Shown: positions 17,899 to 21,304 of the stretch, in pieces
Numbering within the stretch: position 1 is the stretch's first letter
Layout of the letters: every line of letters starts with the position of its first letter
Assembly: GCF_002843425.1 (NCBI RefSeq)
Contig: NZ_NKXO01000004.1
Location: 1-64,000, forward strand
Length of the DNA stretch: 64,000 nucleotides
Reading direction: 5' to 3'
DNA from: Raineya orbicola
Lineage (GTDB): Bacteria; Bacteroidota; Bacteroidia; Cytophagales; Thermonemataceae
Made by a program: the position numbers and the translations under genes
The notes under the pieces: generated by a model
The model's input: the letters and a program-made list of their open reading frames with translations, nothing else
Database searches by the model: none
Told to the model about the DNA's origin: nothing

Positions 17899-18711
17899 AT
17901 GGCAACCGCTACCACACAAAAAACAAATTGGCTTGTAGATATGCTTACAAGCTCTTTGGGCAGAAAGCTCATTATGGCTCTTACAGGGCTTTTTCTGATT
18001 TTATTTTTGGTGGTTCATTTATTAGGCAACTTACAACTGCTCAAAGATGATAACGGCGTTTCATTTAATCGTTATGCCGATTTTATGGGGCATAACCCGC
18101 TTATTCAAACTATCTCCATTGGTAATTTCTTTTTCATTGCCTTGCATATTGTAACAAGCATCATTCTTACGCTTCGCAACCGAGCCGCAAGACCCGTGCA
18201 GTATGCCTATGTAAATATGGGTAAAAGCAGTTCTTGGGCTTCTCGGAATATGATGCTCTTGGGAACAATCATTTTGATTTTCTTGGTAGTGCATTTACAG
18301 GCTTTTTGGGCTAAATCAAAATTTGGCGGTTTGAGCGAAACCACCCTTGATGGCAAAAGCGTACATAACCTTTATGAAGCTACGCAAATAGCTTTCAGTG
18401 AGCTTTGGATTGTGATTTTGTATGTAGTTTCTATGGTAGGTTTGGCTTTTCATTTGGTACACGGCTTTAAGAGTGCCTTTCAGACACTCGGTCTGAACCA
18501 CAAAAAATATAATGCCCTTATTCATCACGTAGGGGTGGCTTTTGCAGTATTTGTGCCTGCGGCGTATGCGTGCATTCCTGTGCTTATGCACACTAAACAA
18601 GAAAGTCTTTCGCTGGTGGCATTGGGAAGTTGTTTGGTTGTAGCAGGCATAGTCTCTGCTATTGTAAAGCCTCGTGAAGAAAGAAAAATGAGCGAAGGAG
18701 GAGCGGGATAA
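17899..18711 (+). CDS. sdhC: Succinate dehydrogenase/fumarate reductase cytochrome b subunit
   Basis: A 270-residue membrane anchor of complex II, the single-subunit di-heme type (SdhC/FrdC b558) usual in Bacteroidota. It has five long hydrophobic segments. Haem-ligand candidates are the histidines in FLVVHLLGN, FIALHIVTS, LVVHLQAFW and LAFHLVHGF, and the SxxGRKLIMALTG start is characteristic. It carries electrons between the flavoprotein/iron-sulfur part and menaquinone. The stop codon is only 1 nt before the ATG of mntA, so the toxin-antitoxin pair is translated from the same message. Confidence 0.93.
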   Translation: MATATTQKTNWLVDMLTSSLGRKLIMALTGLFLILFLVVHLLGNLQLLKDDNGVSFNRYADFMGHNPLIQTISIGNFFFIALHIVTSIILTLRNRAARPVQYAYVNMGKSSSWASRNMMLLGTIILIFLVVHLQAFWAKSKFGGLSETTLDGKSVHNLYEATQIAFSELWIVILYVVSMVGLAFHLVHGFKSAFQTLGLNHKKYNALIHHVGVAFAVFVPAAYACIPVLMHTKQESLSLVALGSCLVVAGIVSAIVKPREERKMSEGGAG

Positions 18712-18712
18712 A

Positions 18713-19009
18713 ATGACTGGCGAATTAGAAAATATACGGCAACGGCTGCTACCTTTTTTTCAAAGAAAACCTATCATAAAGGCTTATTTATTTGGTTCTT
18801 ATGCAAGAGAGGAAGCTAATGAAGAAAGCGATATAGATATTTTGGTTGAATTGGATTACTCACAGATTATTGGTTGGGAGTTTTTGAGTTGGAAAAACGA
18901 AATAGAAGAGCTACTTCAAAAAAAAGTAGATTTGGTTTCGGTCAGAGGTATTTCCAAGCACTTGCAACCATTAATTGAAAAGGAAAGACAAATACTGTAT
19001 GCAAGATAA
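18713..19009 (+). CDS. mntA: MNT-type minimal nucleotidyltransferase antitoxin
   Basis: A 98-residue minimal nucleotidyltransferase with the defining GSYAREE...SDIDILVELD motif (G28-S29, D40, D42) and a third acidic residue about D73 (KKVDLVS). In characterised HEPN/MNT systems this enzyme inactivates the HepT RNase by adding AMP groups to a tyrosine. All catalytic residues appear intact, so it should be active. It starts 1 nt after sdhC stops and overlaps hepT by 11 nt, the usual coupled arrangement of the pair. Its position inside a succinate dehydrogenase operon is unusual. Confidence 0.88.
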   Translation: MTGELENIRQRLLPFFQRKPIIKAYLFGSYAREEANEESDIDILVELDYSQIIGWEFLSWKNEIEELLQKKVDLVSVRGISKHLQPLIEKERQILYAR

Positions 19010-19307
19010 CTTGGGCGATAAAGTTCGTTTGCTTCATATTTTAGAAGCAGTAGAAAGCATTTTAGAGTACACCGCACAAGTTGATTTTGAAATTTTTACA
19101 AGAGAAAAAATGAGGTATGATGCCGTATTGCGTCAGATAGAAATTATTGGAGAAGCCGCAAGTAGAGTATCTAATGAATTAAAATCAAATACAAGTAATG
19201 TTGAGTGGCGAAATATTGTTGGACTACGAAACATTGTTATTCATCAGTACTTTGGAGTAGATGACTTACTTATTTGGAACATCATTCAAAAAATATCCCC
19301 GAATTGA
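18999..19307 (+). CDS. hepT: HEPN-family RNase toxin HepT, C-terminus frameshifted
   Basis: A 102-residue HEPN protein from the ATG at 18999. The RX4HXY RNase motif is complete (RNIVIHQY), including the tyrosine that MNT enzymes modify. The present frame ends abruptly at QKISPN (stop 19305-19307). Reading the next frame from the A6 tract at 19288-19293 restores a family-like ending, NIPELKEQIKNILTTFFP, with a stop at 19346-19348. One missing A would explain this: a real deletion, an assembly error in a homopolymer, or slippage. The catalytic part is upstream of the shift, so toxicity may be kept. Confidence 0.82.
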   Translation: MQDNLGDKVRLLHILEAVESILEYTAQVDFEIFTREKMRYDAVLRQIEIIGEAASRVSNELKSNTSNVEWRNIVGLRNIVIHQYFGVDDLLIWNIIQKISPN

Positions 19308-19348
19308 AAGAACAAATTAAAAATATCTTGACAACATTTTTTCCATAA
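19288..19348 (+). pseudogene. Out-of-frame 3' end of hepT
   Basis: In the frame shifted relative to hepT, the 19 codons after the A6 run read as a plausible HepT C-terminus (PELKEQIKNIL...) and stop at 19346-19348, 21 nt before the sdhA ATG. This segment is untranslated unless slippage occurs or the sequence should have seven A's. Confidence 0.65.
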
Positions 19349-19369: not shown

Positions 19370-21304
19370 ATGAAATTAGACGCCAAAATTCCCGAAGGAC
19401 CGCTTGCCGAAAAATGGGACAGACACAAGTTCAACCTAAAACTTGTCAATCCTGCCAATAAACGCAAATATGAAATCATTGTTGTAGGAACAGGTTTGGC
19501 AGGAGCTTCTGCCGCCGCCACCCTTGCCGAATTGGGCTACAATGTAAAGGCTTTTTGTTTCCAAGATAGCCCACGTAGGGCTCACTCTATTGCCGCACAA
19601 GGCGGTATCAATGCTGCCAAAAATTACAAAAATGACGGCGATAGCGTTTTCCGTCTGTTTTACGATACCATCAAAGGAGGCGATTACAGAGCCCGCGAGG
19701 CAAACGTATATCGTTTGGCACAAGTTTCTGTAAATATCATTGACCAATGCGTAGCACAAGGCGTGCCTTTTGCCCGCGAATACGGCGGACTTTTAGATAA
19801 TCGCTCTTTCGGGGGAGCTCAAGTTTCACGTACTTTTTATGCCAAAGGACAAACAGGGCAACAGCTTCTTTTAGGAGCTTATCAGGCATTGAGCCGTCAG
19901 ATTGCCGCAGGCAAAGTGCAAATGTTCCCTCGTACTGAACTAATGGACGTGGTAGTAGTAGATGGCAAATGTCGTGGCATTATCACCCGAAACCTCGTAA
20001 CAGGCGAAATTGAAGCTCATTCGGCTCACGCCGTTTTGCTCTGTACAGGTGGTTATGGAAATGTTTTTTACCTTTCTACCAACGCAATGGGTTCTAACGG
20101 CTCGGCGGCGTGGCGAGCTCATAAACGTGGGGCTTTGTTTGCCAATCCTTGCTTTACGCAGATTCACCCTACGTGTATTCCTGTATCAGGTGACTACCAA
20201 TCTAAGCTAACTTTGATGTCGGAATCTTTGCGTAATGATGGACGCGTGTGGGTGCCTAAAAAAATTGAGGACGCCGAAGCCATTCGTAAAGGTCTCAAAT
20301 CGCCCAAAGATATTAAAGAAGAAGACCGCGACTACTTTTTGGAAAGGAAATATCCCTCTTTTGGTAACCTTGTGCCTCGTGATGTGGCTTCTCGCAATGC
20401 CAAATACGTGTGTGATGAAGGTAGAGGAGTGAGTCAGACAGGTTTAGCAGTGTATCTGGACTTTGCCGATGCCATCAAACGCGATGGCAAAGCCGTAATT
20501 GAAGCCAAATACGGCAACCTTTTTGATATGTACAAGCAAATCACCGACCAAGACCCTTACGAAGTACCTATGATGATTTACCCTGCGGTGCATTACACGA
20601 TGGGCGGCTTGTGGGTAGATTACAACCTGATGACTACCATTCAGGGTTTGTATGCTCTCGGTGAATGTAATTTCTCTGACCACGGGGCTAATCGTTTAGG
20701 AGCTTCTGCCCTTATGCAAGGATTAGCCGATGGATACTTCGTAATTCCTTATACCATCGGTGATTATTTAGCAACGATTGGTCCTGCGGATAAAGTACCT
20801 GCCTCTCACCCTGCTTTTGAGGAAGCTAAAAAGGAAGTGAAAGACCGCATTCAGAAACTACTTTCTATCAAAGGTAATAAAACCGTTGATGAAATTCATA
20901 GAGAGTTAGGTAAAATTATGTGGGATTACTGCGGTATGTCTCGCAATGCGGAAGGTTTGAAATACGCCAAGGGCAAAATCCAAGAGTTACGTGAAGAGTT
21001 CTGGAAAAATGTAAAGGTTACAGGTACTAATGAAGAATTTAACCAAACTTTGGAAAAAGCCTACCGAGTAGCTGACTTTTTAGAGCTTGGCGAACTAATG
21101 GTTGATGATGCTCTGCACAGAAACGAATCCTGTGGAGGACACTTCCGAGAAGAGTACCAAATAGATGGTGAGGCAAAACGTGATGATGAAAACTTCGCCT
21201 ATGTAGCCGCTTGGGAATACAAAGGTGATAATCAGCCCGAAGTACTGCACAAAGAAGAGCTAATCTTTGAAAATGTTAAGCTCACGCAAAGGAGCTACAA
21301 GTAA
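19370..21304 (+). CDS. sdhA: Succinate dehydrogenase/fumarate reductase flavoprotein subunit
   Basis: A 644-residue FAD-binding catalytic subunit oxidising succinate to fumarate. It shows the dinucleotide-binding [10 protein letters not shown], the covalent-FAD histidine block [15 protein letters not shown], and the substrate site HPTCIP. Further family blocks are [10 protein letters not shown] and a C-terminal [14 protein letters not shown]. Length and start fit the Bacteroidota b558 group, where sdhA usually follows sdhC and precedes sdhB. Here mntA-hepT separates it from sdhC, and a strong terminator with Uma2 genes follows instead of sdhB. The iron-sulfur subunit must be encoded elsewhere if complex II is functional. 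Confidence 0.96.

What the first reader, a model, noticed from the sequence alone, without database searches (positions are those of the whole stretch)
19288..19348. hepT appears frameshifted at an A6 tract, with a family-like C-terminus in the next frame
The current frame ends in QKISPN and stop. Adding one A to the A6 run at 19288-19293 gives QKNIPELKEQIKNILTTFFP, which fits the usual HepT ending. The change leaves the RNase motif intact. It may be a real one-base deletion, an assembly error, or a slippage site that yields two forms of the toxin.
Basis: seen in the sequence. Interest (0 to 1): 0.6.

Follow-up and report, generated by a model that had tools for sequence, protein, structure and literature searches.

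The report
Decaying HepT toxin gene in sdh operon
A bacterial toxin gene of a known toxin-antitoxin pair has lost its reading frame near its end, most likely ordinary gene decay of the toxin while its antitoxin gene stays whole, as happens often in its relatives.

Summary
The hepT ORF (18999-19307) ends in QKISPN* after an A6 tract at 19288-19293. The -1 frame then reads NIPELKEQIKNILTTFFP* to 19348. That tail matches the HepT C-terminus (profile E 2.4e-6 over six frames; next best 1.1), which all 27 aligned intact relatives carry. The short form lacks about 17 residues of the last helix. RX4HXY, and GSX10DXD of the neighbouring MntA, are intact.

Best reading: a real loss-of-frame lesion in a decaying type VII MntA-HepT pair inserted between sdhC and sdhA. 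(1) A congener (G003) keeps only a broken mntA relic there. (2) A second hepT in this genome is also broken beside an intact mntA. (3) Beside mntA, 11 of 24 related hepT copies are broken, against 2 of 29 mntA beside related hepT (p 0.0014). (4) No frame break was found in 30.7 kb of conserved genes holding about 143 A/T runs of 6 or more, so an assembly error is unlikely but not excluded. (5) Nothing supports programmed slippage: no tandem slippery heptamer, downstream structure or conserved A-run. This is ordinary toxin decay.

The parts
17899..18711 (+). sdhC, succinate dehydrogenase cytochrome b558 subunit (upstream flank)
   Evidence: NCBIfam TIGR02046, 159.6 bits against a cut-off of 96
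18713..19009 (+). mntA, intact antitoxin, 98 aa, with GSX10DXD (GSYAREEANEESDID); starts 1 nt after the sdhC stop
   Evidence: Pfam Polbeta/NTP_transf_2; NCBIfam MntA_antitoxin 59.6 bits, cut-off 60
18999..19307 (+). hepT 0-frame ORF, 102 aa, RX4HXY intact (RNIVIHQY), ends QKISPN*; overlaps mntA by 11 nt as in relatives
   Evidence: Pfam HepT-like 91.3 bits, profile 1-109 of 120; alignment A1
19288..19293 (+). A6 tract at or near the frame break
   Evidence: sequence
19292..19348 (+). remainder of hepT in the -1 frame (NIPELKEQIKNILTTFFP*), the family C-terminal helix
   Evidence: tail-profile E = 2.4e-6, next best 1.1
19370..21304 (+). sdhA, succinate dehydrogenase/fumarate reductase flavoprotein (downstream flank)
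   Evidence: NCBIfam NF005749, 1203 bits

Best explanation
This is a type VII MntA-HepT toxin-antitoxin pair inserted between sdhC and sdhA and now decaying. The toxin gene suffered a loss of frame of the one-base kind at or near the A6 tract, recently enough that the tail in the other frame is still open and family-like. The product would be a 102-residue HepT that keeps the RNase motif and the AMPylated tyrosine but lacks most of the last helix of the HEPN bundle, so it is probably unstable or inactive (inferred). The antitoxin MntA stays intact, because losing the antitoxin first would free the toxin, while losing the toxin is free or advantageous (general toxin-antitoxin logic, inferred). 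Shown: the frame break, the homology of the tail, decay of the same locus in a congener, and toxin-biased lesions across relatives. Not shown: absence of activity of the short form, and read support for six A's.
For: The -1 frame tail is homologous to the family C-terminus (E 2.4e-6) and all 27 aligned intact relatives have it. The predicted last helix spans residues 89-115 in an intact relative and 89-98 in the short form. In congener G003 the roughly 170 bp between sdhC and sdhA hold an mntA start region that changes frame and is then deleted, plus a match to the last bases of the hepT tail. Congener G002 and family members G004, G006 and G007 have short sdhC-sdhA junctions with no room for the pair. 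In the same genome C16 has an intact mntA and a hepT missing its N-terminal half, and only C22 has an intact pair. Beside mntA, 11 of 24 hepT are broken; beside related hepT, 2 of 29 mntA are interrupted (Fisher p = 0.0014). Frame breaks in the same C-terminal zone recur in L051, L069 and L097. Assembly accuracy: none of about 26 orthologues from congener G001 shows a frame break in the window, over 30.7 kb and about 143 A/T runs of 6 or more.
Against: No reads are available, so a local assembly or basecalling error cannot be excluded. Only one genome of this species is held. The HepT core outside the break shows no other damage, so the lesion is either very recent or not real. The hits used for the lesion counts are related sequences, not independent events, and the two searches sampled different taxonomic ranges.
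Confidence: 0.78

Rival explanations
1. Assembly or basecalling error: the organism has an intact hepT and the draft miscounts the homopolymer.
For: The break sits at a homopolymer, the tail shows no other damage, and the genome is a 104-contig draft. The two contigs of congener G001 end exactly at the sdhC stop and at the sdhA start, which hints that this spot is hard to assemble or varies between strains.
Against: No frame break was found in 30.7 kb of genes conserved with congeners, which hold about 143 A/T runs of 6 or more (upper bound about 2 percent per run by the rule of three). Decay of the same locus in G003 and toxin-biased lesions in relatives make a real lesion more likely beforehand.
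Confidence: 0.15
2. Translational or transcriptional slippage at A6 makes two forms of HepT, a short one and a full-length one.
For: The tail frame is open and family-like, and A6 is present.
Against: The 0-frame codons are CAA AAA ATA, so a tandem -1 shift would break the pairing; it is not an X XXY YYZ site (sequence). No stable structure follows (MFE -1.1 kcal/mol, z 0.85). Only 3 of 27 intact relatives have a 6-base A/T run in these 13 codons, and they read through in one frame. A6 runs are common in intact genes of this window (53 in the aligned coding part).
Confidence: 0.05
3. The short form is a genuine, functional HepT variant with a shorter C-terminus.
For: The catalytic motif is intact. 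L081 also ends early with no tail in any frame.
Against: No group of relatives shares a conserved short end, and the out-of-frame tail still matches the family, which would be unexpected for an old functional truncation.
Confidence: 0.02

Closest known systems
Type VII MntA-HepT (HEPN-MNT) toxin-antitoxin pairs, e.g. Shewanella oneidensis SO_3166/SO_3165 (PMC7641770; PDB 5yep, 6m6u)
   Same: RX4HXY toxin and GSX10DXD antitoxin, antitoxin gene first with overlapping genes; an intact relative is predicted to have the HEPN fold (best PDB fold matches are 5yep and 6m6u, probability 1.00, E 0.012)
   Different: The toxin frame is broken before the last 18 residues; the antitoxin is shorter (98 aa), nearer in length to the Legionella MNT without helix alpha4 (PMC11586414)
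Orphan antitoxins and decaying toxin-antitoxin pairs, e.g. the Klebsiella survey PMC7192599
   Same: An antitoxin kept next to a lost or damaged toxin; that paper names degrading pairs as one source of orphans
   Different: Seen here for the type VII pair, with an explicit count of toxin against antitoxin lesions

Membership tests
Type VII MntA-HepT pair | HepT-like HEPN domain (PF01934) | tested here: met
   91.3 bits, cut-off 23.5; NCBIfam NF047751 only 41.1 of 60
Type VII MntA-HepT pair | RX4HXY motif in the toxin | tested here: met
   RNIVIHQY, residues 77-84
Type VII MntA-HepT pair | Adjacent upstream MNT antitoxin with GSX10DXD | tested here: met
   GSYAREEANEESDID in 18713-19009; NF047752 59.6 of 60 bits
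Type VII MntA-HepT pair | Complete HEPN bundle with its C-terminal helix in one frame | tested here: not met
   0-frame stops before the last 18 residues; the helix is cut from 89-115 to 89-98. So: a damaged member, not a complete one
Type VII MntA-HepT pair | RNase toxicity neutralised by AMPylation | not testable with these tools
   needs expression
Programmed -1 frameshift site | X XXY YYZ heptamer in the 0-frame plus a downstream structure | tested here: not met
   codons CAA AAA ATA; MFE -1.1 kcal/mol, z 0.85
Programmed -1 frameshift site | Conserved break position and slippery run in relatives | tested here: not met
   3 of 27 intact relatives have a 6-base run there, all in one frame

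The most novel reading that the evidence does not exclude
The A6 tract is a phase-variable or slippery site that lets the population or the cell switch HepT between a full and a short form, tied to expression of the sdh operon.
Probability: 0.05. Interest if true: 0.6.

Novelty: new member of a known kind. Interest (0 to 1): 0.2.

Why it matters
It shows a type VII toxin-antitoxin pair being lost in the order theory predicts, toxin first, at a defined chromosomal site, with a congener one step further on. Genome surveys that predict pairs by motif alone would count this locus as an active toxin, because its catalytic motif is intact.

Tried and rejected
A close relative of this exact HepT, to see the A-run in a second strain, was sought in the public genome collection, viral contigs and plasmids; the best relatives are only about 50 percent identical. 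L058 (NKISPL*) was considered as a natural short form and rejected because it is an in-frame stop with its own tail behind it. Three mntA genes flagged broken by an automatic rule (L052, L063, L071) are open, divergent genes, so the mntA lesion count is 2, not 5; with 5 the contrast weakens to p 0.036. A statistical test for preference of energy operons was not made.

Full report
Observation. The sequence is as described. The hepT ORF starts at ATG 18999, overlaps the mntA stop by 11 nt, and stops at TGA 19305-19307 with QKISPN. A6 lies at 19288-19293. The -1 frame after it reads NIPELKEQIKNILTTFFP and stops at 19346-19348, 21 nt before the sdhA start. The 0-frame product matches Pfam HepT-like over profile positions 1-109 of 120.

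Is the tail real? A profile of the last 18 family positions, built from 29 open relatives and without the window sequence, was run against every open stretch of all six frames of the window. The -1 frame tail scored E = 2.4e-6; the next best was 1.1. In an alignment of 27 intact relatives all continue with a pattern like 'II..DLP.LK...', and residue spacing from the invariant region to 'P.LK' is the same in the window if the tail is read in its own frame. Nearly all intact relatives have 36-48 residues from the motif arginine to the end, against 26 in the 0-frame. The intact relative is modelled with a last helix of residues 89-115 (mean pLDDT 91.3); the short form has 89-98 only (mean pLDDT 86.9, last residues 56). 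The model of the intact relative has the HepT fold of the solved S. oneidensis toxin (by profile).

Where it sits. The pair lies between sdhC (TIGR02046) and sdhA. Congener G002 and family members G004, G006 and G007 have short junctions there without the pair. In congener G003 the junction is about 170 bp and holds a recognisable mntA start (LEYIREKIL and, in another frame, FFGSKPVLKAYF) and then a match of the last bases before sdhA. So the pair was present in the common ancestor of the window genome and G003, or entered twice, and has been nearly erased in G003. In G001 both contigs end exactly at this junction.

Is the loss of frame biased to the toxin? Loci found with mntA were scored for hepT, and loci found with hepT for mntA. 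Of 24 hepT beside an mntA found by search (hepT traces present, not at a contig edge), 11 are broken; in 4 further loci hepT is absent. Of 29 mntA beside a hepT found by search, 2 are interrupted (Fisher p = 0.0014). Three other mntA flagged by an automatic rule are open and only divergent. In the window's own genome there are three pairs: C22 intact; the window with hepT out of frame; and C16 with hepT lacking its N-terminal half. mntA is open in all three. Breaks in the same C-terminal zone are seen in L051, L069 and L097 (frame) and L058 (stop).

Is it an assembly error? Orthologues from G001 and G003 cover 30.7 kb of the window's coding sequence. No frame break was found, although these genes hold about 143 A/T runs of 6 or more. 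That argues against frequent homopolymer errors but cannot exclude one.

Is it slippage? The 0-frame codons at the run are CAA AAA ATA, which do not allow paired tandem slippage. The 83 nt from the run onward fold weakly (-1.1 kcal/mol, z 0.85). The run is not conserved: 3 of 27 intact relatives have a 6-base run there and stay in frame.

Known biology. HepT is an RNase silenced by MntA, which attaches three AMPs to the tyrosine of RX4HXY (PMC7641770). Both motifs are intact here. In the Legionella HEPN the dimer cleft and the Y-loop that holds RX4HXY are formed by the helical bundle (PMC11586414), so loss of most of the helix that follows the motif should impair it; this is inference. Abundant orphan antitoxins, with decay of pairs as one proposed source, are known in Klebsiella (PMC7192599).

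Verdict. A real frame lesion in a decaying type VII toxin gene is the best explanation (0.78), an assembly error is next (0.15), and slippage (0.05) and a functional short form (0.02) are unlikely.

Noticed in passing
window 18713-19348; L002 1486-2119; L056; L100; L101: MntA-HepT pairs sit inside operons of energy complexes: sdhC|sdhA here, just upstream of atpB (after an atpI-like gene) on C22 of the same genome, nuoD-like|nuoE-like in L056, and transhydrogenase-subunit-like genes in L100 and L101 (the last three named by eye). About 23 of 77 loci lie between close same-strand genes. No enrichment test was made.
   Followed up: partly
L003 1166-1641 (G000 C16): Second decayed pair in the same genome: intact mntA followed by a hepT remnant of only 52 residues that keeps the C-terminal part.
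   Followed up: yes
L042 / L043 (G001 C5 end, C7 start): Two contigs of a congener end exactly at the sdhA start and the sdhC stop, as if the junction varies between strains or could not be assembled.
   Followed up: partly
window 18713-19009: The antitoxin matches PADLOC candidate defence family PDC-S09 (E 3.6e-21) and weakly HalB of the Hailong anti-phage system.
   Followed up: no
L047, L049, L053, L059, L060, L061, L063, L078, L080, L088, L099, L005: Many related hepT genes carry in-frame stops or frame breaks at scattered positions; L053 and L060 have mntA interrupted as well.
   Followed up: yes
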